A stretch of 64,000 bases of DNA from Photobacterium sp. TLY01 (GCF_021432065.1 NZ_CP090364.1:3300601-3364600); one strand, 5' to 3'; positions 43,909-61,137 are shown, counted from the stretch's first letter. Program-made: numbers and translations. The notes: generated from the sequence alone by a model not told the origin.

Positions 43909-43926
43909 TTATTTTCCGATACAGAA
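43909..43926 (-). repeat. Distal attachment core (duplicated mnmE 3' end)
   Basis: On the minus strand TTCTGTATCGGAAAATAA, which reads FCIGK-stop, the last codons of mnmE. It matches the core at 61120-61137 at 16 of 18 positions, the two differences being synonymous (GGA/GGG, AAA/AAG). It marks the end of the island away from the integrase. Confidence 0.9.
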
Positions 43927-43964: not shown

Positions 43965-43983
43965 TTGGGGACCGATTGGGGAC
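43965..43983 (+). repeat. Paired TTGGGGAC boxes (putative recombinase arm site, distal end)
   Basis: TTGGGGAC at 43965-43972 and 43976-43983, repeated with an 11-bp period, 39 bp inside the distal core. Equivalent pairs occur at the other island end. Confidence 0.6.
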
Positions 43984-44073
43984 CAAATTGCAATTTATGG
44001 TCAAATACTAACTTCCCAAGATGACTTCCATCATAGATCAGGATGGGAAAAGTGGGAATGGTGGGAAACCGGA

Positions 44074-46878: not shown

Positions 46879-47388
46879 CTAAATTTGCAGTTTTTTTATC
46901 GCTCGCATCGTTTTTCTCACCTGGCTAGACAGCTCTCTTATTGGATTCACACGCTGTTCCAGTCGGTTGATCTGGTCTAGCAAATGAAGATAGAGAGGGA
47001 TTTCCCAATCCATTGCATGTGAAAAACGGCGTAACACCCCATTTGAAACTTCTTGGGTTTCAAGCTCAGGATACCAACCTCCACGAGCGATCATGCGGTG
47101 CCATTTGATTTTAGGTAAGCGCTGTTCACTCGTAACAATGAACTCATAGCGAAATGGGTACTCGACGTTGTACTCTTTTGACAAGGCTTCCTTTAGTTTA
47201 TCCATTTGTTTCTTCAGTTCTTTTGCTGCTGCCATCAAGTGCTTTGACTCTGTCGCAACGAAATCAGATAAACCATCGATTCTTTCTGGCAAAGGAACTG
47301 GCTCAGGCAGCTTCAACTTGAGATTACTTAACTCAATTTCCTTGCTTAGTTGCACGATGCCGACATTGGGTGTGGTTTTCTTAGCCAT
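46879..47388 (-). CDS. Helical island protein coupled to the MobI-like gene
   Basis: 169 residues from ATG 47388 (TGGAGAAGCAGA upstream), whose ATGGCTAA overlaps the upstream gene's stop by 8 bp, so the two are translationally coupled. Long charged helices dominate (FVATESKHLMAAAKELKKQM, INRLEQRVNPIRELSSQVRK), with an aromatic segment in between (KWHRMIARGGWYPELETQ). No family recognised. By position it may be an accessory factor of the mobilisation protein; that is inferred. Confidence 0.65.
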   Translation of the reverse strand: MAKKTTPNVGIVQLSKEIELSNLKLKLPEPVPLPERIDGLSDFVATESKHLMAAAKELKKQMDKLKEALSKEYNVEYPFRYEFIVTSEQRLPKIKWHRMIARGGWYPELETQEVSNGVLRRFSHAMDWEIPLYLHLLDQINRLEQRVNPIRELSSQVRKTMRAIKKLQI

Positions 47389-47959
47389 TCTGCTTCTCCA
47401 TTTTTTGAAAGTGTTCACGAAGCTTGTTAAGTCGTTTTGTACAAATTTGCGCTTTTTGTTTGATGGTGAGGATTTCATGCCGCACTTCGCGGATCAGTGC
47501 GAAGGCATCTTCTGTGTACTCAATAAGATCGGATTCCCATTCCGAGTTTGCTTTTGAAAATCGGCCAGGTGGGTAACGAAAGCCTTTGCCTTTCGATAAA
47601 TGCTTAGAACGAACACGTTGTTCTTTGTTGTTTCTCAGTGACATTTGATTGGTACTGAGATACCAGTTGTAATACCAAGCCGCTTCAAAGCGATGGTTGC
47701 GAACCCGAACACGACAGCCGTAGCGGCCAGGTGAGGTTTCCTTATGGGCTCTATGGGTTCGCCAAAACTGGTTAGCGTAGTAACTGGCTAAAAACTCCAG
47801 TAGATAGGGTTCCTGCATTGCAAAGTTTTCGATATCAGCAAGGGCTTTGAGCGATTGTGATAGAGCGAGTTCAAAGCATTCTTGCTCATTTTCGGTGTGT
47901 CGTTGCTGGGATCGTTGATGCCATTGATAGGCGGCGGAATGTTCACTTAATACTGTCAT
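47381..47959 (-). CDS. MobI-like conjugative mobilisation protein
   Basis: 192 residues from ATG 47959 (AAGGAGCCACC upstream). The core ANQFWRTHRAHKETSPGRYG with CRVRVRNHRFEAAWYYNWY, followed by GFRYPPGRFSKANSEWESDL and IEYTEDAFALIREVR, resembles the MobI family of SXT/R391 elements and related mobilisable islands, which acts at oriT. This is recalled similarity, not a search result. A 550-bp noncoding region upstream is where oriT would be expected. Confidence 0.5.
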   Translation of the reverse strand: MTVLSEHSAAYQWHQRSQQRHTENEQECFELALSQSLKALADIENFAMQEPYLLEFLASYYANQFWRTHRAHKETSPGRYGCRVRVRNHRFEAAWYYNWYLSTNQMSLRNNKEQRVRSKHLSKGKGFRYPPGRFSKANSEWESDLIEYTEDAFALIREVRHEILTIKQKAQICTKRLNKLREHFQKMEKQNG

Positions 47960-48516
47960 GGTGGCTCCTTGATTATTTTGCTCAAGGTAGCGCAAACACA
48001 TTCTTACTTACGCATCTGTAATTGCCCTTTTGGGGTGCATAATTTTCCTCGTGTCCCACCGCTGATTGGCAAGCATGGCAGCAATTCCTCTCCTGGGACC
48101 TATCCCTGTACTTTCCAGATACCTATCTTTGTGGGACGTAGCTAAGGATTATTTTCGTTGCTTTATTGTTTTGGCGGGGATGTAGGGAGTCGTAGTCCAG
48201 TCATTGTGGGACCTGAGCATCCATTTTTTATTCTGATGGGGTTGTGACGGTAACTTTCTAGATTATTGTGGGATTTTGCCTGTTTGTAGTGATTGAGGGC
48301 TGATGTACTTTCACATTTGAAAGCCCTAGATAGCAGTTCAACTAGTAAAATGGTGGTATTCTCTTATTAGTGTTAGGAATCATTGTAATATCAATATCAA
48401 TATCATAATCAAAACAGAAATTCTAAATTACCAACGTTTTTGGTCTCCAGTAAGTGATTAAAGATATTCATGCAAGGCTGTGGATCGTGGTAAGCAATGC
48501 GTAGGAAGTGATTAAT
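47960..48516. other. Noncoding region, candidate oriT and promoters
   Basis: No gene seen in 557 bp between the divergent MobI-like and STAND genes. The motif TGGGAC occurs at 48054-48059 (inverted), 48094, 48132 and 48207, with TGGGAT at 48269. Three tandem AATATC units lie at 48387-48404, and part of a 21-bp sequence shared with 53159-53179 is at 48308-48328. It is upstream of mobI, the oriT position in SXT-type elements. Confidence 0.4.
48308..48328 (+). repeat. 21-bp repeat copy 1, upstream of the STAND gene
   Basis: Identical at 20 of 21 positions to 53159-53179. Contains CTTTCA - CATT - TGAAAG followed by CCCTA, with GAGGGCT at 48295-48301 able to pair with AGCCCT. Confidence 0.7.
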
Positions 48517-51500
48517 ATGTCAATAATGGTTAGTCAGGAGTTTATTGAGCCATCGGATATTGAGCAGGAAATAGCAGGGCAACAACAGACTAGTGTTATT
48601 GAAGTTGGCGCTCAATCTCTGCCCTATCAAAATTTAGACCCAGCGCAGTTCGAATGCTTACTTTGGGATCTGTTTCGCAGCGGTTTTGAAACAGATCTTG
48701 GGCATGACTATACGCGACTGATGCTCACAGGAGCAGATCAGGGGCGCGATGTATGGATGACCTCGCACGAAATCCCGGTCGGCTTAGTTCAGTGCAAACG
48801 CTATAGCGAGAAGATTACCCTAAGAGAAACAATAAAAGAGATCGTTAAGTTTCTTCTTTACGCAGACCTGAATAGGAAATTGTTACCAAAACCCGACTGT
48901 TTCACTTATTACTTAGCTCTTAGTTGTGACCCAACGGGTGAGGTTGATGAGTTTTTCAACACACCAAGTTCATGGCTGAGAGATAACCCTGAAGAAATCG
49001 AGACAGCAGCCAAAGCTGTAATTGCTAAGTATGCTTCTCTAAAGATGGTTGATCTAAGCTGTGCAATGTTACCTCTACGAGAGCGATTTCAAGCATTGAA
49101 CTATAGGTTGTTAAGGCCTCATGAACTGGATAGAGCTCTTAGTATCCATACAGATGTAAGAGAGCGGCACTTTAGGATTCCGGTTCATTCACTGCAACTG
49201 TCCAGAGCTCCGTTTTCTGGTAATACTACCGCTGTTCCAAACGACTTGGCTCAAGCTAGCCGACATCTTGCCTGTTGGCAAAAGACTATTGAAAATCGAT
49301 TTATAGAACGACCTGAGCTACAAGATTTGCTTCAACTGGTTCATTCAAATGAGAGTAGTTGTCATATTCTGACTGGCGTATCAGGCAGTGGGAAATCGTC
49401 ACTACTATCTGCTCTTTATGAACGCTTACCTGACGACGATTTTTCTGTTCTGGCAATTAAAGCGGATGAGTTAGATGCCAAGGTTAACGATCTGACTGAG
49501 TTGGCAGAAAGTCTCAAACTAAGTGGAAATCTTACCAATACTTTGCTTGGGGCTTCACAAACCAAACCAGTGGTATTGCTAATTGATCAAATGGATGCAG
49601 TTAGTGAGGTCATGGATCAAAGCTCAAACCGTTTTAGAGTGCTTGTAGACCTGGTTGTTTCTCTAAAAAGTCGGTTTGAGAGCATTAAGTTAAGCGGTAA
49701 AAAGCCCGTTCATATCATCGTGACTTCTCGCCCCTTTGAGGCTAGTTTTGATACTCGTTTTACTCAGTTGGAAGCAAAGCATATTGAACTGCCATTGCCT
49801 GAAAAGTCAGCTGTTGAAGCACTTTTAACTGACTTGGGGATAGAAATATCATCGATCCCGCCATCTATGTATCCAGCAATTCAAGTTCCTTTCGCTTTAA
49901 ATCTGTATGTAAGCCTTATTAAGGCTGGAGAACACCCTAGTCAGATTACGTCAAAGAATTTGTTGCAGCGATGGCTGGATAAGAAACTGACAGACAGAGC
50001 AAGTCGAGCTGAACAGATGCTTTTTTTAAAGCGTCTGGCTCAGGATATGGTGAGTAACGAAGTACTCAGGCGTCCTGTTGATGCTTACCAGTTTGAGAGC
50101 GGCCACGTTATTGCAGCGCTAGAGGCGGCTGGTATTTTGGTGCGGTATGATAAGAATATAGGCTTTAGCCACCAAGCCTGGCTTGATGATTTTCAGGCTC
50201 AGAGCTTTAGTAATTCAGATGATTTGTGTAGTTTCGTCTACCAAAAACAAGATGGCCTTTTTTCTAGAAGCACGATTTTGCGAGGACTTGAATCTTTGAG
50301 GGAAAGAGATCCTATGGGGTATCAGTCCACTCTTGACTCATTACTCTTCGGTGGTCGATCACGACGTCATATCCTTCACCTGCTAGTAGATATCCTGGCT
50401 ATTTCACCAACCCCAAGTGCATCCGATGCTGAACGAGTTATTCGATTGATTAATGATGACGTAGTTTTAGCTAAAAGAGCAATATCTAAAGTAGCGGCAA
50501 ACTGGAGCAATTGGCGAGATCATTTGATAGCTAGCATACCAGATATAATGGAAAAAGCTGAATATAGTAGTCACGTGGTGGAATGGTTGATCGCTGAGTC
50601 TAAACACGATGAAGAGCATGTCATATCACTACTTAACAGGCTTTGGTTTGAGCCAACTTATGATGAGATGGTCCTCAATGTATTATGGCGATCCTCGGCA
50701 AACTCAGAGGCCGCTTTGCGGCTTGTTGAGCAGTTAATATCCAGAAATAATGTTGATTCCTCCTATGTAGGAAGATATCTATCCGGTTTATGTAAGAAAG
50801 GGCACGGCAAGCCAGCGTTGACTATTCTTGTTGCTTGGTTGAACTCGGTCGATGACAAAACAGCATTAGAACAACACATCTACGGCTTCGAGAAACTTGC
50901 TAGAAAGCATTCTCTGGAATGTATCGAAGCGATATTGCCATGGGTAGTGCAGCTAATAGAAAAAGAAAACAGCAGCGCAAAACTTGGTTACTCTTACCGT
51001 CGTACAATCAGGTCTGTTATTGAGTGGAATGAACAGTCGGATAATAGCTACCTTTTAGGTGGTCTTCGTCTTGCGATAGCTGTTTCAGCCAAAAATACTC
51101 CAAACGAGTTGCTTCATTTAGTCAGGCCATACATGGCCGTTGATATTGATGATGTACAGGTCATTGTTGCATCAGCTCTATTGTCTAATGGAAAACATTA
51201 TGCGCAGGACATATATGACTATCTGCTTGGTGACCGTTGTCGCTTACAGTTAGGTTCTGGTTACTTCAAAGATGAAGATAATGTCGGTTATACATTTAAT
51301 GGCAGTATTACCCTGGAACTGATAGAAGAAGCGGTCTCATTTTGGGATGATAAGCAAGTTGCTGGTATTAGAGATGCTATTGAGCAGTTCAGTTCGCATC
51401 AGCCAAGCGCTGATTATCCTGCTGATATGAAGCTAAGGTGTATGCATTACAGCGAGGGTTACCGACTGGCATTACTTTCGAGGTTGCCATCAAAAGCTTT

Positions 51501-53073
51501 GTCCCCGAGAAGAAATAGACAGGTATCAGAAAGACATATAAGGCTAGAGCCTGCTATTGGTGAGCGTTCCAGAGGAGTTGGCATGGCTTCTGTCGTTAGG
51601 TCACCAATGTCCTCAGAACAGATGGGGAAAGCCCGTAAAGAAGATATATTAAATTTGCTCAATGAGATAACTGATCAGCATAAGCGTCATGGTGGGGGAC
51701 GGCGTTGGCTTTCTGGTGGAGTAATTGAGTTGTCTAGATCTTTCGGTTCGTATGCTGCCAACAACCCTGAGCAGGCAATAGAGCTTATTACGGATGAGTT
51801 CCGTCAGGGCTTGCACGAATATGCGGCCTCAGAGGCAATTGAGAACTTAGCGAAGTCTGAAGTTGTAGCTACAAAGGAAATAGTGAATCTTATCATCCAA
51901 CTCAATCAGCGTGGGTTTAACTCGAAAGAGTGGATAACCGGCGTTGCTAGAGCATTCCAGGCAATAGCAGGACGAGAATATGGATTAGATGATCAGTGTA
52001 TTCAAATACTTTTGGGTTACTTAAATTCAAATTTAGATACAGGGTTCGAACTTGAGGGTGATCGCACGGAGGCTGAACCAGGACAGGCACTGCTTTTTGG
52101 TCATGATAACGGCTTTCGTACAGTTCCTGCTGGAAATTACACTATCATGTCTGCCATACATTACGGTTTGCTTTGTCGCCAGCCCCCGAGCTGCGATGCT
52201 TGGGCTGATGTCTTATTGCAGTTTTTGGATACATCACAAGACACTGAAACTTGGAAGTGTCTATTGCTGTTTCAATTTCGCCATTTACGTTGGGCTAGTC
52301 AAGATAAGTGTAATGAGTTGGTTCATCGGCTGGTTGATGAACATACCCATGTATTTTCGTTACCAACAACTGCTATGACAATCTGGGAATTAGCTGATGT
52401 ATTACAGCCTGAAACACTGCTAAAAATTGTTAGATACTGGCTATCTTCGAAATCATCAGCCTTGATTCAAGTTGCTGGAGAGTTTATTACAGGACAACTG
52501 ATCATTGGTAACGAGAATAATGAACTACATCAGATTTGGAACCAGCATTTCAGTCTAAAAGAACCTCATTTCATGCGTGGCATTATCCATGCGGCATGTT
52601 CTGGTTGGCAGGAAACGGGAAAAGTTCGAGGCGATTCCCACAAAATGCTTATGGCGTGCCTTCAGGATGACACAAAGGAGCTGGTCACCGCATTAAACAG
52701 TTTGTTTTCATATAGCAAGCAGATGCCAAATGATGAACTGACTTATGAGGTAGTTGATTGGCTTGCTGGTCATCCTGAAGCTGTATCTGAGTTAAACAGG
52801 CACTGTCTGATTAGCAACCTGGTCAAAATTAATTTTTCTCCTAAACTTCAGCTCTCAATACTTGATATTGCTAAGAACTTAGTAATATCGCAGCAGAAAG
52901 AAAATCCAGAGCGCCAATATTTTGAACACAGCGAAGAGTTGGTTCAGCTCGCAGTTACTTTACAGAGAGGAGCTGGAGCGATAAAAGAAGGAGCAATAAC
53001 GTTGTACGAAACCTTATTGGATGCAGGTAACTATCAAGCAGAAGAAGCAGCACAAGAAGCTTTGAGGCTTTAA
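48517..53073 (+). CDS. Mrr-type nuclease / STAND NTPase, putative antiphage effector
   Basis: Protein of 1518 residues from ATG 48517 (GGAAG at 8 nt; a GTG at 48508 is also open). Residues 40-200 form a PD-(D/E)xK nuclease of Mrr type: FECLLWDLF with Glu46, GADQGRDVWM with Asp78, and VGLVQCKRY with Gln92/Lys94. A NACHT/STAND-like NTPase follows: Walker A TGVSGSGKSSLL at 286-297, Walker B PVVLLIDQMD near 351-360, and VTSRPFE at 402. The last 1000 residues are helical, repeat-like, without cysteine-rich or membrane segments. This nuclease-STAND-repeat layout is that of Avs-type prokaryotic sensors, in which phage-protein binding triggers DNA cutting. Function here is inferred. Composition is AT-rich. 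Confidence 0.75.
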   Translation: MSIMVSQEFIEPSDIEQEIAGQQQTSVIEVGAQSLPYQNLDPAQFECLLWDLFRSGFETDLGHDYTRLMLTGADQGRDVWMTSHEIPVGLVQCKRYSEKITLRETIKEIVKFLLYADLNRKLLPKPDCFTYYLALSCDPTGEVDEFFNTPSSWLRDNPEEIETAAKAVIAKYASLKMVDLSCAMLPLRERFQALNYRLLRPHELDRALSIHTDVRERHFRIPVHSLQLSRAPFSGNTTAVPNDLAQASRHLACWQKTIENRFIERPELQDLLQLVHSNESSCHILTGVSGSGKSSLLSALYERLPDDDFSVLAIKADELDAKVNDLTELAESLKLSGNLTNTLLGASQTKPVVLLIDQMDAVSEVMDQSSNRFRVLVDLVVSLKSRFESIKLSGKKPVHIIVTSRPFEASFDTRFTQLEAKHIELPLPEKSAVEALLTDLGIEISSIPPSMYPAIQVPFALNLYVSLIKAGEHPSQITSKNLLQRWLDKKLTDRASRAEQMLFLKRLAQDMVSNEVLRRPVDAYQFESGHVIAALEAAGILVRYDKNIGFSHQAWLDDFQAQSFSNSDDLCSFVYQKQDGLFSRSTILRGLESLRERDPMGYQSTLDSLLFGGRSRRHILHLLVDILAISPTPSASDAERVIRLINDDVVLAKRAISKVAANWSNWRDHLIASIPDIMEKAEYSSHVVEWLIAESKHDEEHVISLLNRLWFEPTYDEMVLNVLWRSSANSEAALRLVEQLISRNNVDSSYVGRYLSGLCKKGHGKPALTILVAWLNSVDDKTALEQHIYGFEKLARKHSLECIEAILPWVVQLIEKENSSAKLGYSYRRTIRSVIEWNEQSDNSYLLGGLRLAIAVSAKNTPNELLHLVRPYMAVDIDDVQVIVASALLSNGKHYAQDIYDYLLGDRCRLQLGSGYFKDEDNVGYTFNGSITLELIEEAVSFWDDKQVAGIRDAIEQFSSHQPSADYPADMKLRCMHYSEGYRLALLSRLPSKALSPRRNRQVSERHIRLEPAIGERSRGVGMASVVRSPMSSEQMGKARKEDILNLLNEITDQHKRHGGGRRWLSGGVIELSRSFGSYAANNPEQAIELITDEFRQGLHEYAASEAIENLAKSEVVATKEIVNLIIQLNQRGFNSKEWITGVARAFQAIAGREYGLDDQCIQILLGYLNSNLDTGFELEGDRTEAEPGQALLFGHDNGFRTVPAGNYTIMSAIHYGLLCRQPPSCDAWADVLLQFLDTSQDTETWKCLLLFQFRHLRWASQDKCNELVHRLVDEHTHVFSLPTTAMTIWELADVLQPETLLKIVRYWLSSKSSALIQVAGEFITGQLIIGNENNELHQIWNQHFSLKEPHFMRGIIHAACSGWQETGKVRGDSHKMLMACLQDDTKELVTALNSLFSYSKQMPNDELTYEVVDWLAGHPEAVSELNRHCLISNLVKINFSPKLQLSILDIAKNLVISQQKENPERQYFEHSEELVQLAVTLQRGAGAIKEGAITLYETLLDAGNYQAEEAAQEALRL

Positions 53074-53228: not shown

Positions 53229-55211
53229 GTGGCATCGAACATGTTTCATATTCAAGATCAAATGGATTTACAGGCTCTGTCTGAGTCTGCGGAGTTAGAG
53301 TTTAAGCTTGCCCAGGGTAAGGATGGAAAGGGAAAGCTCCCAGATGATTTTTGGCCTACCTATAGTGCGATGGCTAACAGTCGTGGTGGCTATGTGGTAT
53401 TGGGTGTTCGCGAAAGAAAGGGCAAATTGACACTTGCGGGTATAGAAGATATTGAAACAGTTCGTAAGCAACTTTTTGATATTGCTGGTAATAACGCCAA
53501 GGTGAACATTAACTTGTTGACTAATGACAGTGTGCAAGCTGTGACGGTAGAAGGCAAGCAACTGCTGGTTATCGCGATCCCGGCTGCTCGTAGAGAACAA
53601 AAACCTGTCTATCTGAAGAATCAGCCAATGAAAGAGACCTTTGTGCGTTTACATGAGGGGGATCACCGCTGTAGCGAAGAACAAGTTAAACGTATGATGG
53701 CTGAGCAGGTTGAAAGCAGTAGAGACGATAAAATCCTTAAAGGGTTTAATTTTAGTGATATTGATCCTGATAGTCTCAGCGCATACAAGAATTTGTTTGC
53801 TGCGGCTAAGCCTCAGCACCCATGGTTGGAACTCGATCTATTCGAGATGTTTAAGAAGATTGGAGGATGGCGAAAAGATCGCCAGGCTGGTGAGGAGGGA
53901 ATTACGTTAGCAGGCGTCCTCATGTTTGGAACATGGGAAGCGATTCAAGAAGCCGCTCCAAACTATTTTGTTGACTATCGAGAGAGAGATGAAGCCAATA
54001 CGCAGCGCTGGATTGATCGTGTTTACCCTGATGGATCTTGGTCTGGAAATGTATTCGACTTTTATCGACGTACATACAGAAAATTAATCACGGACTTAAA
54101 AGTTCCTTTCGAGCTGCAAGAAGGAATACGGCTGGATGAATCCAAGGCTCATGAGGCAATTCGTGAAGCTTTGGTTAATACTCTTGTTCATGCTGATTAC
54201 ACTGGACGAAGCTCAATACTCATCGTTAAACGGCCGGATCTGTTTGGTTTTCGAAATCCAGGATTGATGCGTATACCACCGGAAATTGCAGTCAAAGGTG
54301 GAGAAAGCGATTGCCGTAACCGACGCATGCACCAGATGTTTTTGATGATCGGTGCTGGTGAGCGAGCTGGCTCAGGTATACCGAAGATTTACAGTGGTTG
54401 GGAGGCTGCTAAATGGCGAACTCCAAAACTGTATGAGAAGCAATCGCCCTCTGAACAGACACTTTTAGAGCTATCAACAGCAAGTTTAATTCCTAATGAA
54501 GTTACAGAGCTACTTGGTTCTTTATTCGGTGATCGTTTTTATACGCTTGATGAACTTGAGCAGATGATTGTCGCCACGGCGGCTATTGAGGGATGGGTTA
54601 ACCATGAACGGGCATGCCAGTTAACAAGCAAGCACTCCCGTGACGTAACATTGACCTTGCCTAGGCTAGTAGATAAAGGCTTTTTGGTTGCAAGTGGTGT
54701 AAAGAAAGATAAGTCCTATAGTTTACCTGGTATGGAACCCCCTTCTCCCGAAGATGTTTTCTCAAATGCGTTAACCCCTCTTGACAACTTAACGCATAAC
54801 GTCGACAACTTAACGCATAACGATACCAACTTAACGCATAGTGGCTTGGTAGAGAATGTTACTAAAGGCGAGGAAAGGGACTCAAGAGGCCGTTTTATAA
54901 GTGAAAAAATCGATAAGCCATTTGTTGATGAGCTAAGCGTATTGACTGAAGAGTTCCGTTTGGAGCTTAACGCATTAGGTTCTCAAGCTAGAGAGCAGCG
55001 TCGCTTGGATACTGATACAATGAAGCAACTGATAATCGATCTTTGCAAAGGACATTATGTATCAGTTGCGGTGCTTGAGGTTCTGTTGGATCGTAGAGCA
55101 CAAAGCTTACGCCAAAACTATCTGAAACCAATGGTATCTACTGGGGAGCTTAAAATGGCCTTTCCTCATAAACCTAATTCACCAATGCAGGGTTATACGA
55201 CTTCGGAGTAG
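53229..55211 (+). CDS. AlbA_2/Schlafen-type and HATPase domain protein
   Basis: Protein of 660 residues from GTG 53229 (ATG 53241 is also possible; no clear ribosome site). Residues 15-145 match the AlbA_2 (Schlafen/AAA_4) domain: ESAELEFKLAQG, NSRGGYVVLGVRE, TFVRLHEGDHRCSEEQV. Residues 300-390 show the GHKL-type HATPase_c_4 domain: EAIREALVNTLVHADY and MIGAGERAGSGIPKI. A C-terminal winged-helix part follows, split by a NLTHN tandem repeat. Such proteins bind nucleic acid or act as ATP-dependent regulators, often in defence regions. It follows the STAND gene by 155 bp, with a palindrome between. Confidence 0.8.
   Translation: MASNMFHIQDQMDLQALSESAELEFKLAQGKDGKGKLPDDFWPTYSAMANSRGGYVVLGVRERKGKLTLAGIEDIETVRKQLFDIAGNNAKVNINLLTNDSVQAVTVEGKQLLVIAIPAARREQKPVYLKNQPMKETFVRLHEGDHRCSEEQVKRMMAEQVESSRDDKILKGFNFSDIDPDSLSAYKNLFAAAKPQHPWLELDLFEMFKKIGGWRKDRQAGEEGITLAGVLMFGTWEAIQEAAPNYFVDYRERDEANTQRWIDRVYPDGSWSGNVFDFYRRTYRKLITDLKVPFELQEGIRLDESKAHEAIREALVNTLVHADYTGRSSILIVKRPDLFGFRNPGLMRIPPEIAVKGGESDCRNRRMHQMFLMIGAGERAGSGIPKIYSGWEAAKWRTPKLYEKQSPSEQTLLELSTASLIPNEVTELLGSLFGDRFYTLDELEQMIVATAAIEGWVNHERACQLTSKHSRDVTLTLPRLVDKGFLVASGVKKDKSYSLPGMEPPSPEDVFSNALTPLDNLTHNVDNLTHNDTNLTHSGLVENVTKGEERDSRGRFISEKIDKPFVDELSVLTEEFRLELNALGSQAREQRRLDTDTMKQLIIDLCKGHYVSVAVLEVLLDRRAQSLRQNYLKPMVSTGELKMAFPHKPNSPMQGYTTSE
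54783..54845 (+). repeat. In-frame 21-bp tandem repeat (three units)
   Basis: Three units of 21 bp encode DNLTHNV, DNLTHND and TNLTHSG in the linker between the HATPase region and the C-terminal domain of the AlbA/HATPase protein. The first two units are nearly identical, so slippage could change the linker length. Confidence 0.85.
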
Positions 55212-55609: not shown

Positions 55610-57283
55610 ATGAAGTTTCGTCATCACCATGATCAACTACAGTATTTCTGCCGTGAGCGAGGTTGGCGTTCGTTGAGCTCTTCGGTCAAGGTTCTTGCTA
55701 GAACGCGTTCACCTGATCGGAAGTCAGGTTTCAGTGCTTGTATTGAAATCATCAATATGGACAAGCAGACGATTCGAATGATAGTGCCTGCCAGAAAGAT
55801 CATGGGAGGGACCAACTATCAATTAAGAGATGAATTATTCGATACCGGTTTCTGGCTGGAGCCTGAGCAAACTGCATGGAATATGGTCCAGCGCTATTTG
55901 CGGGAAGAGCTCAAAGCGGCGGACACGGCCTTTTGTGTTACAAGAACAGGTTGGCATGACAAGGTGTTCGTTACTCCGGAGAAAAGTTTCGGACGGTCAG
56001 ATGAGTCCTACTACTTTTCTGGTGGGATGGCAGACTCACTCTGTTTGGCAAAAGGGAGCTTAGCGGAATGGCAAAGCGAAGTCGGTTCTTTGTTGGTCGG
56101 CAATCCCTTGCTTATATTTTCTGTTGGCGTCGCTTTGGCCGCGCCGCTGCTCAAGCCAGTAGGGATGGAAAGTGCGGCATTCCATGTGATGGGGCCGTCT
56201 TCGTCGGGTAAGTCTGTCACATCGTTTGTCGCTGCGTCTGTTTATGCTGATAAGTCTTATATCAAGTCCTGGAAAACAACCGCTAACGGTATTGAGGCGG
56301 TTGCATCAGAGCATCATGACATGTTGCTTGTGTTAGATGAGCTAGGGTTGTGCTCGGCGGAAGAAGCCAGTTCTGCGGCTTATCAAATCGTCAACGGATG
56401 TGGGAAGCTGCGAGCCACCGAAACAGGCGGCCTGGCGAATATAGCCAATTGGCGAACGCTGACATTGAGTAATGGAGAGGTTGGCCTGACAGAGCTGATG
56501 GAGTCCTCTGGTTATCAAGTGAAAGCAGGTCAGCTCATTAGAGTAATCGAAATTCCTGCCGAAGAGCGCTTTGGCTGTTTTGCGGATCTACACCGCTTTT
56601 CCTCACCATCTCAGTTTGCTGAGCACTTAGAAAAGCAGACTCAAAAGTACTTTGGCACTTTGTTCACGGCGTGGATGACGCTTATTTCAGATAAGCCCGA
56701 TCTGGAAGTCGTTTTACAGCGTGAAATCGAAACGTTGAGGCAGCATTGGTCTAAAAGCAATTATTCCGGCCAGGTTCATCGGGTATTGAAGCGCTTTGTC
56801 CTTGTTGGTGTCGCGTTGTCTGTTGCGTCACGAAACCAGTTAGTGCCATGGTCTGAAGAAGAGTCACTGTATTCCGTATATAGCGTTTTTAGCCGCTGGT
56901 TATCTCACAGAGGGCACCAGCACAATCAAGAAACGTATGAGGTGTTAAGTGCTTTGAAGCAAGCGATTCGGTATTGGGAAAATAAGCTTCCTGAATTCTG
57001 CACGAGCAGACTTTCAAAGTTTGGTTACTGGCGGCAGGATGGTGATGATGTCCAGTGGCTTATCCACAAACAAGAGTTTATTAAGCAGCTTCGACTACGG
57101 CGTCAATATAAGAGTCAATTGAGCCCTTTAATTCATAAAGGGTGGTTTGAAACCAATGAAGATCGTAGAGGAACACTTCGGATTATCGAGAAGAAAAACG
57201 GTACTGAGTTTGATCATCGTTTTTTCGCTTTCTGGCCGGAAAAGATCCTCTCTGAATTGAAGGAGATGGGCATCGATGAATAA
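55610..57283 (+). CDS. DUF927-family P-loop ATPase (putative replication helicase)
   Basis: Protein of 557 residues, start ATG 55610 after GGGAGGTCAT. It has Walker A MGPSSSGKSVTSFVAASVY at 194-212, a preceding SVGVALAAPLLKPVGMESAAFHV, Walker B MLLVLDELGL at 238-247, and downstream LRATETGGLANIANWRTLTLSNGE. These are typical of DUF927 proteins, which are found in phages, satellites and integrative elements, usually as the replication helicase or primase-helicase. With the GATC/DnaA-box region, it suggests the island may replicate when excised. That is inferred. Confidence 0.8.
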   Translation: MKFRHHHDQLQYFCRERGWRSLSSSVKVLARTRSPDRKSGFSACIEIINMDKQTIRMIVPARKIMGGTNYQLRDELFDTGFWLEPEQTAWNMVQRYLREELKAADTAFCVTRTGWHDKVFVTPEKSFGRSDESYYFSGGMADSLCLAKGSLAEWQSEVGSLLVGNPLLIFSVGVALAAPLLKPVGMESAAFHVMGPSSSGKSVTSFVAASVYADKSYIKSWKTTANGIEAVASEHHDMLLVLDELGLCSAEEASSAAYQIVNGCGKLRATETGGLANIANWRTLTLSNGEVGLTELMESSGYQVKAGQLIRVIEIPAEERFGCFADLHRFSSPSQFAEHLEKQTQKYFGTLFTAWMTLISDKPDLEVVLQREIETLRQHWSKSNYSGQVHRVLKRFVLVGVALSVASRNQLVPWSEEESLYSVYSVFSRWLSHRGHQHNQETYEVLSALKQAIRYWENKLPEFCTSRLSKFGYWRQDGDDVQWLIHKQEFIKQLRLRRQYKSQLSPLIHKGWFETNEDRRGTLRIIEKKNGTEFDHRFFAFWPEKILSELKEMGIDE

Positions 57284-57342
57284 TATATTCCCAGTTTTCC
57301 CACTCTTCCCAGAGACATTCCAATGGGCGAGGAGGTGATGTG

Positions 57343-57678
57343 ATGACAACCAACGAGCAAGTTATTCTTCAGTCCATTCTCGCCAAGATTGACCGTGTTG
57401 AGCGCGCTATTCTGGAGCAGCGTTTGCAGCAACAAAAGGTGGAGTTGCTTGGAAAGGACATTCTAACCGTTGATGAATGTGCTGCTTTGCTGGGTTTATC
57501 AACCAATCAACTTTATAAGCTAACGAGCTCGGCAGAGATCCCTTACTTTAAGCTTGGCAAACACCTCCGATTTGAGCGTCAAGCAATCATGGATTGGGTT
57601 GAGGAGCAGCGCGTTTCATCTCGCCATGAGATAGAAAAAAGGGCAGCAAACTATGTCGCCACCACTTATCGTAAGTAA
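57343..57678 (+). CDS. Excisionase-family HTH protein
   Basis: 111 residues from ATG 57343 (GAGGAGGTGATGTG upstream; a GTG at 57340 is also open). The N-terminal helix LAKIDRVERAILEQRLQQQ is probably a coiled coil. A winged HTH of the excisionase type follows (ILTVDECAALLGLSTNQLYKLTSSAEIPYFKLGKHLRFERQAIMDW). It could be the recombination directionality factor or a replication regulator. It is followed by a terminator. Confidence 0.8.
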   Translation: MTTNEQVILQSILAKIDRVERAILEQRLQQQKVELLGKDILTVDECAALLGLSTNQLYKLTSSAEIPYFKLGKHLRFERQAIMDWVEEQRVSSRHEIEKRAANYVATTYRK

Positions 57679-57992: not shown

Positions 57993-58142
57993 ATGTACGA
58001 AAACCAGATTCAATGTGCAGAGTGCTATTGCACTCTGTACTTCACTGGAAAAAATGGACCATTAGGGGTTACAGGCGAACTTTGTTACGACTGTCAGAAG
58101 GAAAAAGACTCAATGGATGAATATGATGACGACGATGACTAA
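57993..58142 (+). CDS. 49-residue zinc-ribbon-like protein with acidic tail
   Basis: Small gene starting ATG 57993 with TTTGGAGTTAAT upstream. The product begins MYENQIQCAECYCTLYFTGK and has CYDCQKEK further on: two CxxC pairs likely to bind zinc. It ends in a run of five Asp. Its end overlaps the start of the 529-residue gene by 26 bp in another frame. Function unknown. Confidence 0.6.
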   Translation: MYENQIQCAECYCTLYFTGKNGPLGVTGELCYDCQKEKDSMDEYDDDDD

Positions 58143-59706
58143 GGTTTCTTTCCCAACTCTTGGTGAAGCGGTGAAGTTAGTCTTCAACAGCACTGGGTTG
58201 TTGGCCCAAAAGCACAATAAATCGGCGATATTGGCTGATGAAACAAAGAAAAAGACTATCCAAACCAAGTTGAATAGGCTGGCTAAGGAGGACGGTGATC
58301 TTGATAAAACACTTGCTGATTTAGAAGTCTATTTTATTGGCTTGGTGTATGAAGCGACTCAAGACCCGCGGATTAGCGAGGCACTTCTAGCAAGCGTGAG
58401 AGATTTGTACCAATCTTACAGGGCTACTTTAAGTGATGAAGGGACTTACCTTTCAAAAGAGGAAACGGTCAAATGGCTTATTGAGTACCGTTTGGCTGAT
58501 CTCATTATTAAGTCCGCACATAAATATGCGTTAATGTATGGCGCAGCTGTGAGCAGTTTAAAAGCACCTTGCAAAATTGATTGGTGGTTGCCCACATTTT
58601 CGGGAGAGCAAGTTTGCTGGCCTGTAGAAAAAGCTTGGCGTTGGATTTATCAAGAATGCGGAACGAATCAAAGTCGATTTCATAATCCTTTAGATTTAGA
58701 TGGCAGGGCAAGCCAAAATTTGGAAAACGTATCTCGCTGGTTTAACCGAGGACGATTACCCAGTTGGGGAGAGCTACAGACGAACTTTGAGTATTCTGTT
58801 GAGCAACTGGCAAGTTGCGGTGACCAGCGATATTGTAGAAAACTGAGTGCAGAAGATGTCCATAGCTTCACATGTATTCTGTTTCTTGCTCGACTATCGA
58901 CTGATATTTTTCAGCAGATAAGTTCTGCTTTTGGGAGTAGCTTTATTCAACGCTTGGTTGTTCAAATGAAAGCTCAAAACCGTAGAATGGTTAAGTTTAA
59001 TCAAGAGCTTAAAAAACAGATTTCCGTTGAGTTGTTTGAAGTTGGCCCTCTAATTTCACAGCGATACTACGAGTTTTGGTTTCAAGAGGTGGATTTATAT
59101 TGGTGGCAGTATGCTCAGCATCTAGGCCAGGACGCACATATATTTCAGTCTATATTGATAGAGCGAGACGGCTCACCGTTTTCACTCTCAGAAGTTAAAA
59201 AGCTTAGGAGGCGATTTGATGCTTATTTTCTTGCCATGTGCCTAAGAGTGCATCACAAACAAATAGACTCAGATAAGAAAAGCTTCATGCTGAATTATAT
59301 GGATGGTAAAAAGCAAAGAAAGTCATTAACGTTATCACTCACGGATATTCAAGACTATCAGCGTAGTATCGATGAAGCTGGACATGGTGATACTTTGCGG
59401 TGGATGGTTGAATGGATGTTCGCAACATATTTTTACCGAAAAGACGATCATCGGTCAGCGTTAGGGCACTATAAAAAAGCGTTTGAGCTTTCAAAGCATA
59501 GCGTGGGTCATGATACGTACCTACTCGTGAACCAATTTGCTGAGTGTTGTGCAAAAAATGATAAATGGCGCGAGTTTAAGAAGTTAGTCGCCTGGGCTTG
59601 TCACCAGAAGGTAGAGATTCGCTGGCATAGAGGATTTGATGAATCCGAAGATGCTGTGAAGGGAGCCTTTGAAATGTTAAAAATCGCTAATTATCCAATC
59701 CTATGA
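58117..59706 (+). CDS. Island protein of 529 residues, function unknown
   Basis: Long, mostly helical soluble protein starting at ATG 58117, or at 58123, 58126 or 58135 within the same MNMMTTM run. It has Trp-rich stretches (KIDWWLPTFSGEQVCWPVEKAWRW, VDLYWWQYAQHLGQD) and a C-terminal part reminiscent of tetratricopeptide helices (ATYFYRKDDHRSALGHYKKAFELSKHSVGH). I do not recognise a family. It overlaps the zinc-ribbon gene and precedes the convergent integrase, so it belongs to the backbone module rather than the cargo. Confidence 0.7.
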   Translation: MNMMTTMTKVSFPTLGEAVKLVFNSTGLLAQKHNKSAILADETKKKTIQTKLNRLAKEDGDLDKTLADLEVYFIGLVYEATQDPRISEALLASVRDLYQSYRATLSDEGTYLSKEETVKWLIEYRLADLIIKSAHKYALMYGAAVSSLKAPCKIDWWLPTFSGEQVCWPVEKAWRWIYQECGTNQSRFHNPLDLDGRASQNLENVSRWFNRGRLPSWGELQTNFEYSVEQLASCGDQRYCRKLSAEDVHSFTCILFLARLSTDIFQQISSAFGSSFIQRLVVQMKAQNRRMVKFNQELKKQISVELFEVGPLISQRYYEFWFQEVDLYWWQYAQHLGQDAHIFQSILIERDGSPFSLSEVKKLRRRFDAYFLAMCLRVHHKQIDSDKKSFMLNYMDGKKQRKSLTLSLTDIQDYQRSIDEAGHGDTLRWMVEWMFATYFYRKDDHRSALGHYKKAFELSKHSVGHDTYLLVNQFAECCAKNDKWREFKKLVAWACHQKVEIRWHRGFDESEDAVKGAFEMLKIANYPIL

Positions 59707-59769: not shown

Positions 59770-60948
59770 TTAGGCCGCTGAATCCTTTCCAGAAGAAGCA
59801 AGAATATCAGGGAATGTCAGCATCGCTTCCATTCGGCGTTGTTCAATGATGTCAGCGTAGATCTCGGTTGTCTTGAGTTCGCTATGACCGAGCAATCGAG
59901 ACACTGAGTAAATATCCACACCTCTGCTTAGCTGGATAACGGCAAACGTATGGCGGCCACTGTGGAATGTAACGTGCTTACTTATCCCAGCAGCCAGAGC
60001 CCACCTAAGCAGTTCTACATTTATATAAGAAGAGTATTTCAGTCCCTTGAATACACGCTCGTGAGAGGCTTTAGGGTTGCCCAGAAGAGATTCTGCGAAC
60101 TTTGGTAGGTCGAGGTATTGGAGGCTTTTAGCATCGCCGTGAGAGAGTTTGACTTGGTCGAATATAATTCGCTTGTGATTATTAAATGTCTCTATTTCTG
60201 ACCAAGTAAGTCGATGGATATCGCACCAACGCATCCCCGTTGCACATGAGAACAAAAACGCACGTTTAAGGACTGGGTAGCGACATTCTGTGTGAGCTAA
60301 AGCGTTGACCTCATCCAATGTTAGATAAACACGCTTAGTCGTTTTCGCTTTGATACTGGTCACTTGTGAAAGCGGGTTATCACGAATAATACCTTCTCGA
60401 TGAGCTTCGTTGATCGCCGCGCGAACTTTATTGAAGTAGGAGCTTTGTGTGTTGCGAGATAACGCGGTATCACTTTTGGTTTTCGCTTCATTGGTCAGGT
60501 AATACTTAAACCCATCTAACCAGTCTTTATCCAGCTCATCAAAGCTAAGATCATGTTTCCCGCAGTAGAACAGCAGGTGCTTACGAGCTGAAAGCCAGAT
60601 CGAATGGTTGGAGGTTGAGGTGGTTTGTTCTTTGATGTCAATTTGCCGTTGAAAGTAATCAATGAAGCTAGCTGAACGTTTGGTTCGATCCTCAAAACCG
60701 TGCTTTTGGGATTGCCACTCAACCAGTCGTTTACTCTTAATAGTTTCGGCTAGGAGAAGGTGCTCTTTGTTATGTTTTCGCTGAGCTGGTGTTTTGGGTT
60801 TGTCATAGATAAACAGATCCAGCACTTCGTGTTCACGTTTTCGCTGACGAGATCCGTTTGATTTAGTGGTATAACCGTGGTCATAAATGAGACGCAATGT
60901 TCGCGTTCCATCTGCTTTAAGTGTCCGTTTTTCAATGAAAATTTTCAT
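59770..60948 (-). CDS. int: Tyrosine recombinase (island integrase)
   Basis: 392 residues from ATG 60948 (a TTG at 60960 is also open). The N-terminus, MKIFIEKRTLKADGTRTLRL, looks like an arm-binding domain, and a SAM-like core-binding domain follows (SFIDYFQRQIDIKEQT). Catalytic residues are Arg240 in CATGMRWCDIHRLTW, His329 and Arg332 in TFHSGRHTFAV, His355 in LLGHS and Tyr364 in TTEIYADI. The layout resembles Bacteroidetes-type integrases. The gene lies 170 bp inside the mnmE-side core and reads away from it, with arm-like boxes in its upstream region. Confidence 0.93.
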   Translation of the reverse strand: MKIFIEKRTLKADGTRTLRLIYDHGYTTKSNGSRQRKREHEVLDLFIYDKPKTPAQRKHNKEHLLLAETIKSKRLVEWQSQKHGFEDRTKRSASFIDYFQRQIDIKEQTTSTSNHSIWLSARKHLLFYCGKHDLSFDELDKDWLDGFKYYLTNEAKTKSDTALSRNTQSSYFNKVRAAINEAHREGIIRDNPLSQVTSIKAKTTKRVYLTLDEVNALAHTECRYPVLKRAFLFSCATGMRWCDIHRLTWSEIETFNNHKRIIFDQVKLSHGDAKSLQYLDLPKFAESLLGNPKASHERVFKGLKYSSYINVELLRWALAAGISKHVTFHSGRHTFAVIQLSRGVDIYSVSRLLGHSELKTTEIYADIIEQRRMEAMLTFPDILASSGKDSAA

Positions 60949-60952
60949 GTTT

Positions 60953-60971
60953 GTCCCCAATTGGTCCCCAA
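60953..60971 (-). repeat. Paired TTGGGGAC boxes, inverted (putative arm site next to int)
   Basis: On the minus strand two TTGGGGAC copies (60971-60964 and 60960-60953), 11 bp apart. They cover the ribosome-site region of the integrase gene, so binding could also control its expression. Confidence 0.6.
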
Positions 60972-60990
60972 TACGGCATTTATCATGTCA

Positions 60991-61009
60991 TTGGGGACCA
61001 ACTGGGGAC
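60991..61009 (+). repeat. Paired TTGGGGAC/CTGGGGAC boxes (putative arm site)
   Basis: TTGGGGAC at 60991-60998 and CTGGGGAC at 61002-61009, 11 bp apart, in the same orientation as the distal-end pair at 43965. Confidence 0.6.
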
Positions 61010-61119: not shown

Positions 61120-61137
61120 TTACTTCCCGATACAGAA
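61120..61137 (-). repeat. Integrase-proximal attachment core in mnmE
   Basis: On the minus strand TTCTGTATCGGGAAGTAA, the last six codons of the current mnmE (FCIGK-stop). It matches the distal core at 16 of 18 positions and strongly resembles the known SGI1 attachment sequence in thdF/trmE. Confidence 0.9.

What the first reader, a model, noticed from the sequence alone, without database searches (positions are those of the whole stretch)
48517..53073. Very large nuclease-STAND-repeat protein: candidate new antiphage sensor
Seen: a Mrr-like nuclease signature (Glu46, Asp78, Gln92-x-Lys94), then Walker A GVSGSGKSS, Walker B LLIDQMD and a TSRP sensor, then about 1000 residues of helical repeats, in one 1518-residue frame on an integrase-bearing island. 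Known: Avs/NACHT-type STAND proteins combine a variable N-terminal effector, an NTPase and a C-terminal repeat sensor, and several use Mrr or Cap4 nucleases. Inference: this is a phage-protein sensor that degrades DNA on activation. The C-terminal repeats do not remind me of a named Avs group.
Basis: partly seen in the sequence, partly recalled or inferred. Interest (0 to 1): 0.75.

Follow-up and report, generated by a model that had tools for sequence, protein, structure and literature searches.

The report
NLR-like bacterial immune sensor with nuclease
This is a large bacterial alarm protein, built like the Avs phage sensors and the animal NLR receptors, that most likely recognises an invading phage with its long helical tail and then cuts DNA with its front end; it belongs to a little-studied family that fits about a dozen different weapons to the same sensor.

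Summary
The frame 48517-53073 (+), 1518 aa from an ATG with a Shine-Dalgarno site, encodes an Mrr-type PD-(D/E)xK nuclease, a STAND/NACHT-type NTPase and about 920 residues of helical solenoid. AlphaFold gives confident folds. Foldseek ranks Avs4 and Avs3, then NLRP3, closest to the first 687 residues. The four predicted catalytic residues are invariant in 14 relatives. Best explanation: a single-gene, NLR-like antiphage protein whose solenoid detects an invader protein, whose NTPase oligomerises, and whose nuclease cuts DNA. The anatomy is shown; ligand and activity are inferred. The STAND+solenoid module recurs from cyanobacteria to Bacillota and Planctomycetota with SEFIR, DUF4062, death-like, HNH, CHAT, PNP or helical N-termini, and in a sister group with Cap4, TIR or EAD5: effector swapping on a conserved sensor. 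Its solenoid does not match Avs4's, no PADLOC or NCBIfam Avs model is met, and its NTPase forms a clade apart from Avs4. A full-length sister-group protein is already solved (PDB 9n00, 9n01, 9yix). The gene rides a 17.2-kb MobI-bearing island at the 3' end of mnmE (trmE), a class of island known to carry antiphage genes. Verdict: a real, well-supported new member of a known kind.

The parts
48503..48508 (+). Shine-Dalgarno-like AGGAAG, 8 bases before the ATG
   Evidence: sequence
48517..53073 (+). CDS, 1518 aa: Mrr-type nuclease + STAND NTPase + helical solenoid
48604..49161 (+). N-terminal effector, Mrr-type PD-(D/E)xK nuclease domain (about residues 30-215)
   Evidence: Pfam Mrr_cat; model; E46, D78, Q92, K94 invariant in 14 members
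48652..48798 (+). stretch from E46 to K94 holding the predicted catalytic residues (E46 48652-48654, D78 48748-48750, Q92 48790-48792, K94 48796-48798)
49249..50316 (+). STAND/NACHT-type NTPase with winged-helix part (about residues 245-600)
   Evidence: AAA_16, nSTAND1; Avs4, Avs3, NLRP3 NACHT
49375..49401 (+). Walker A GVSGSGKSS (residues 287-295)
49576..49596 (+). Walker B LLIDQMD (residues 354-360)
49723..49734 (+). sensor-1-like TSRP (residues 403-406)
50161..50175 (+). GFSHQ motif of the winged-helix part (residues 549-553), G, F, H and Q invariant in the family
50305..53070 (+). C-terminal HEAT/ARM-like helical solenoid, predicted sensor (residues 597-1518)
43916..43926 (+). left attachment repeat CCGATACAGAA
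   Evidence: 2 matches in the window, 0 in 100 shuffles
61127..61137 (+). right attachment repeat CCGATACAGAA, inside the 3' end of mnmE (trmE)
59770..60960 (-). tyrosine integrase of the island
47381..48001 (-). MobI mobilisation protein
   Evidence: Pfam MobI 1.3e-24
53229..55211 (+). neighbouring SLFN_AlbA_2 / HATPase_c_4 gene; probably a separate passenger
   Evidence: also beside the Motilimonas copy but not the other copies examined

Best explanation
A single-gene, NLR-like antiphage protein carried as cargo on a mobilisable genomic island. At rest the HEAT-like C-terminal solenoid holds the STAND NTPase inactive. On infection the solenoid binds a conserved invader protein; the NTPase exchanges nucleotide and oligomerises; the N-terminal Mrr-type nuclease domains are brought together and cut DNA, stopping phage replication, probably at the cost of the cell. 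Shown here by sequence, model and comparison: the three-part anatomy, intact active-site and NTP-binding residues, conservation with swapped effectors, the mobile island, and defence genes near relatives. Inferred from Avs and NLR knowledge: ligand binding, oligomerisation, DNA cleavage, abortive outcome.
For: Nuclease core with E46, D78, Q92-x-K94 invariant in 14 members. Structure match to Avs4 (6e-12), Avs3 (3e-10) and NLRP3/NLRC4 NACHT. Solenoid sensor. The same NTPase+solenoid module joined to SEFIR, DUF4062-like, bDLD1, HNH-like, CHAT, PNP or helical N-termini, and in the sister group to Cap4-like, TIR or EAD5, with Mrr carriers not forming one group in the NTPase tree: the hallmark of effector swapping. 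The same nuclease domain also heads Lamassu-like LmuA proteins. In four loci examined, known defence genes lie within 7.5 kb: GajAB, a CBASS cyclase plus OLD protein, a type IIG restriction-modification protein, a PtuAB-like pair. dN/dS is below 1 in all but one measured block against Motilimonas and low across Pseudomonas copies, so the gene is kept functional. No partner gene is conserved across loci. The island is of a class whose cargo is mainly restriction and antiphage genes (PMC7449626).
Against: No phage challenge, ligand or nuclease assay exists for this family in what I could read. The Mrr_cat Pfam score is only just above its cut-off. The four neighbourhoods with defence genes were chosen because their neighbours looked promising, without a control set. 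Foldseek TM-scores to full-length Avs chains are low (0.20-0.27 by query length), so the domain folds match better than the overall arrangement.
Confidence: 0.72

Rival explanations
1. A modification-dependent (type IV-like) restriction enzyme: the solenoid or N-domain reads modified DNA and Mrr cuts it directly, with the NTPase as motor or switch.
For: The N-domain is Mrr-type, and Mrr proteins are classical type IV enzymes (general knowledge).
Against: The NTPase is STAND/NACHT-like rather than a DNA translocase, and the same NTPase+solenoid carries SEFIR, DUF4062-like, death-like, CHAT and nucleosidase-type N-termini, which need no DNA substrate.
Confidence: 0.1
2. A defence protein against other mobile elements (plasmids, competing islands) rather than phage, protecting the MobI island from rivals.
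For: It is cargo of a mobilisable island, and some bacterial defence proteins act on plasmids (general knowledge).
Against: Relatives lie beside phage-defence genes such as Gabija and CBASS, though this does not exclude plasmid targets.
Confidence: 0.12
3. A two-gene system with the downstream SLFN_AlbA gene (53229-55211).
For: The two genes are adjacent, on the same strand, 155-160 bases apart, in the window and in Motilimonas.
Against: The gene is absent beside the other copies examined, including the 50% identical one in the same genus.
Confidence: 0.05

Closest known systems
Avs4 (AVAST type 4)
   Same: N-terminal Mrr-type nuclease, STAND NTPase, long helical C-terminus, similar length; best Foldseek match 8dgf; NTPase homologous by profile comparison (97% probability)
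   Different: NCBIfam Avs4 16.6 bits against a cut-off of 1500; sensor profiles do not match; the NTPase tree puts it outside the Avs4 group
Avs3
   Same: nuclease-STAND-solenoid plan; Foldseek match 8dgc
   Different: no PADLOC or NCBIfam Avs3 hit among those listed; not in the top 50 of the C-terminal Foldseek search
PDB 9n00/9n01/9yix, 'AAA family ATPase' (1523 aa)
   Same: homologous NTPase (profile E 4e-42); this solved protein belongs to the sister group over its full length, whose solenoid aligns with ours over 883 columns
   Different: N-terminus is Cap4-like rather than Mrr; no paper for it found in the held library
PADLOC candidate PDC-M54A
   Same: NTPase region matches at 2.7e-19
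   Different: only profile positions 318-608 of 1621 match; effector and sensor do not
Lamassu effector LmuA
   Same: related Mrr-type nuclease domain
   Different: LmuA works with SMC-like LmuB; no such gene here
NLRP3/NLRC4-type NLRs
   Same: NACHT-type NTPase fold; effector-NTPase-repeat order
   Different: solenoid is HEAT-like rather than leucine-rich; nuclease effector

Membership tests
Avs4 | full-length match to the curated Avs4 model (cut-off 1500 bits) | tested here: not met
   16.6 bits; true Avs4 proteins in related genomes score 1734-2088
Avs4 | Avs4-type sensor | tested here: not met
   hhalign of the sensor profile against an Avs4 alignment: probability 0.1%
Avs4 | N-terminal Mrr-type nuclease plus STAND NTPase | tested here: met
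Avs4 | activation by phage portal protein | not testable with these tools
   needs a co-expression assay
Avs1-Avs5 as curated | full-length hit to a PADLOC or NCBIfam Avs model | tested here: not met
   only short P-loop-region hits (Avs4); other family members likewise give weak hits
STAND/NLR-like proteins | Walker A/B, sensor, winged-helix part and NACHT-type fold | tested here: met
STAND/NLR-like proteins | C-terminal superstructure-forming repeats | tested here: met
STAND/NLR-like proteins | variable N-terminal effector on a conserved core | tested here: met
STAND/NLR-like proteins | ligand-induced oligomerisation | not testable with these tools
   needs purified protein
Mrr/PD-(D/E)xK nucleases | core fold with E, D and QxK in place | tested here: met
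Mrr/PD-(D/E)xK nucleases | DNA cleavage | not testable with these tools
   needs an assay
MobI genomic islands at trmE (MGIVchHai6-like) | insertion at the 3' end of trmE/mnmE with flanking repeats | tested here: met
   CCGATACAGAA at 43916 and 61127
MobI genomic islands at trmE (MGIVchHai6-like) | mobI gene and integrase | tested here: met
MobI genomic islands at trmE (MGIVchHai6-like) | AcaCD-type binding sites, xis-86-85 operon, oriT | not tested
   not searched; the HTH_17 gene at 57340-57678 may be xis

The most novel reading that the evidence does not exclude
The STAND + HEAT-solenoid module is a separate pan-bacterial class of NLR-like receptor that recognises an invader pattern not covered by Avs1-Avs5, and evolution has fitted it with about a dozen interchangeable effectors; the Mrr form in the window would found a new Avs-like type.
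Probability: 0.35. Interest if true: 0.65.

Novelty: new member of a known kind. Interest (0 to 1): 0.47.

Why it matters
It gives one conserved sensor with many natural effectors, so the ligand question can be asked once and read out with different outputs. The sensor family carries no name in PADLOC or NCBIfam, spans several phyla, and has a solved sister-group structure, which makes ligand finding and domain swaps practical. It also shows a MobI island at trmE carrying an NLR-like receptor, beside the restriction systems already reported for such islands.

Tried and rejected
Viral contigs and phage records hold no relative. E. coli genomes hold no similar DNA. Literature searches for the PDB codes and for PDC-M54 found nothing in the held library. 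I considered filing the protein as Avs4 because domain order and effector agree; the curated model and the sensor comparison rule it out. I considered a two-gene system with the SLFN_AlbA neighbour; it is not conserved. I looked for positive selection in the solenoid: dN rises in patches (residues 721-780 against Motilimonas; about columns 900-1200 in Pseudomonas), but dS rises with it, which points to recombination rather than selection. I looked for att repeats around the Motilimonas copy and found no convincing pair.

Full report
What is there. The frame at 48508-53073 (+) is open over 1521 codons. The likelier start is the ATG at 48517: AGGAAG stands 8 bases before it, the GTG at 48508 overlaps that site, and the close homologue aligns from the same residues. 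Residue numbers below count from that ATG. The gene is 43% G+C and the island 44%, against 54% for the 43 kb to its left.

Anatomy. Residues about 30-215 match Pfam Mrr_cat just above its cut-off. The AlphaFold model of residues 1-687, built on 26 sequences, has mean pLDDT 82.5 and shows the helix-strand-strand-strand-helix-strand order of a PD-(D/E)xK nuclease, with E46 in the first helix, D78 in the second strand and Q92-x-K94 in the third. These four residues are invariant in 14 Mrr-type members. Residues about 245-600 are a STAND-type NTPase with Walker A, Walker B, TSRP and a winged-helix GFSHQ motif. Foldseek ranks Avs4 bound to portal (8dgf, 6e-12) and Avs3 bound to terminase (8dgc, 3e-10) first, followed by NLRP3, NLRP9, NLRC4 and NOD2 structures. 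Residues 597-1518 are almost entirely helical (mean pLDDT 83.2) and resemble HEAT/ARM solenoids such as MMS19, karyopherins and CAND1. Avs proteins are not among the top 50 of that search.

Relatives. The family is rare. In about 1260 sampled genomes, full-length Mrr-type matches outside the window's own genome were found in only two. A scan of 84,980 species genomes with two conserved motifs, hence a lower bound, gave 40 loci. Mrr-type copies occur in Motilimonas (92%), Photobacterium alginatilyticum (50%), Pseudoalteromonas and Vibrio (43%) and Pseudomonas (33-34%). The Photobacterium contig has the same length as that of the same-genus hit, so the window most likely comes from a Photobacterium species (inference). 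Other members keep the NTPase and the solenoid but have other N-termini: SEFIR, DUF4062-like, bacterial death-like domain 1, HNH-like, CHAT, nucleoside phosphorylase-type, or helical domains without a Pfam match. In the NTPase tree these 27 proteins form one group, in 96% of bootstrap trees when Avs proteins are included. Mrr carriers are split by members with other N-termini. This is the effector swapping expected of NLR-like proteins.

Sister group. A sister group carries Cap4-like, TIR or EAD5 N-termini. Its profile aligns with our solenoid over 883 columns at 100% probability. The solved chain 9n00_A, 1523 aa, named only 'AAA family ATPase', matches that sister group over its full length and our family's NTPase at 4e-42. 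I found no paper on it. So the fold has been solved, but its biology is unknown to me.

Is it an Avs? It works like one, but it is not a member of the curated Avs families. The curated Avs4 model gives 16.6 bits against a cut-off of 1500, while true Avs4 proteins from related genomes score above 1700. Profile comparison finds the NTPases homologous (97%) and the sensors not related at this sensitivity. PADLOC's closest model, the unnamed candidate PDC-M54A, matches only the NTPase stretch.

Setting. The gene lies on a 17.2-kb island between two copies of CCGATACAGAA at 43916 and 61127; the right copy is within the 3' end of mnmE, also called trmE. Two copies in the window compare with none in 100 shuffles. 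Copies of TTGGGGACC lie at both ends, plausible integrase arm sites. The island has an integrase at the mnmE end and a MobI gene. A family of IncC-mobilised islands with mobI at trmE is described, and its cargo is predominantly modification, restriction and antiphage genes (PMC7449626). I did not test for the other marks of that family. In Motilimonas the STAND gene and its SLFN_AlbA neighbour also sit beside mnmE. Several Pseudomonas copies follow guaA directly, and the Pseudoalteromonas copy lies between genes that look like ttcA and uspE (by eye). No partner gene is conserved across these places, so the gene is probably self-sufficient. Four loci that I picked because their neighbours looked promising hold Gabija genes, a CBASS cyclase with an OLD protein, a type IIG restriction-modification protein and a PtuAB-like pair. 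There was no control set.

Mechanism. The most economical reading is that the solenoid recognises an invader protein, the NTPase oligomerises, and the nuclease cuts DNA. Anatomy, active-site conservation and swapping are shown. Ligand, oligomerisation, cleavage and cell fate are inferred from Avs and NLR proteins. The main rival, a type IV-like restriction enzyme, is disfavoured because the same core also carries effectors that need no DNA. A role against plasmids or rival islands cannot be excluded.

Novelty. The general kind, NLR-like antiphage STAND proteins with swappable effectors, is known, and conflict systems built on NTPases with swapped effectors have been surveyed (PMC7159879). What is new is the assignment of this protein to an unnamed family with its own solenoid, the list of effectors that family carries, and its presence on a MobI island at trmE.

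Noticed in passing
53229-55211 (+): 660-aa SLFN_AlbA_2 / HATPase_c_4 gene 155 bases downstream, in the same position in Motilimonas (L013:13318-15321), with weak PADLOC pAgo-model matches; probably a separate passenger, function unknown.
   Followed up: partly
43965-43984 and 60963-60999: Four TTGGGGACC copies (0.54 expected), two near each end of the island; likely integrase arm or excision sites.
   Followed up: partly
55610-57283 (+) and 57340-57678 (+): DUF927 helicase-like gene related to the SCCmec Cch1 helicase, and an excisionase-like HTH_17 gene, suggesting the island can replicate or excise.
   Followed up: no
58117-59706 (+): 529-aa ORF beside the integrase with no Pfam, PADLOC or NCBIfam assignment apart from marginal TPR matches.
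   Followed up: no
L019:9120-14842 and L020:9294-14986: Three-gene Lamassu-like operons whose first protein carries a relative of the window protein's Mrr-type nuclease domain.
   Followed up: partly
window 50668-50847 (about residues 718-777): This block is only 68% identical to Motilimonas against 92% overall; both dN and dS are raised, suggesting a recombined patch near the start of the solenoid.
   Followed up: partly
L007:873-8732: In Sinorhizobium a sister-group STAND protein lies a few genes from a multiubiquitin/ThiF cluster.
   Followed up: no
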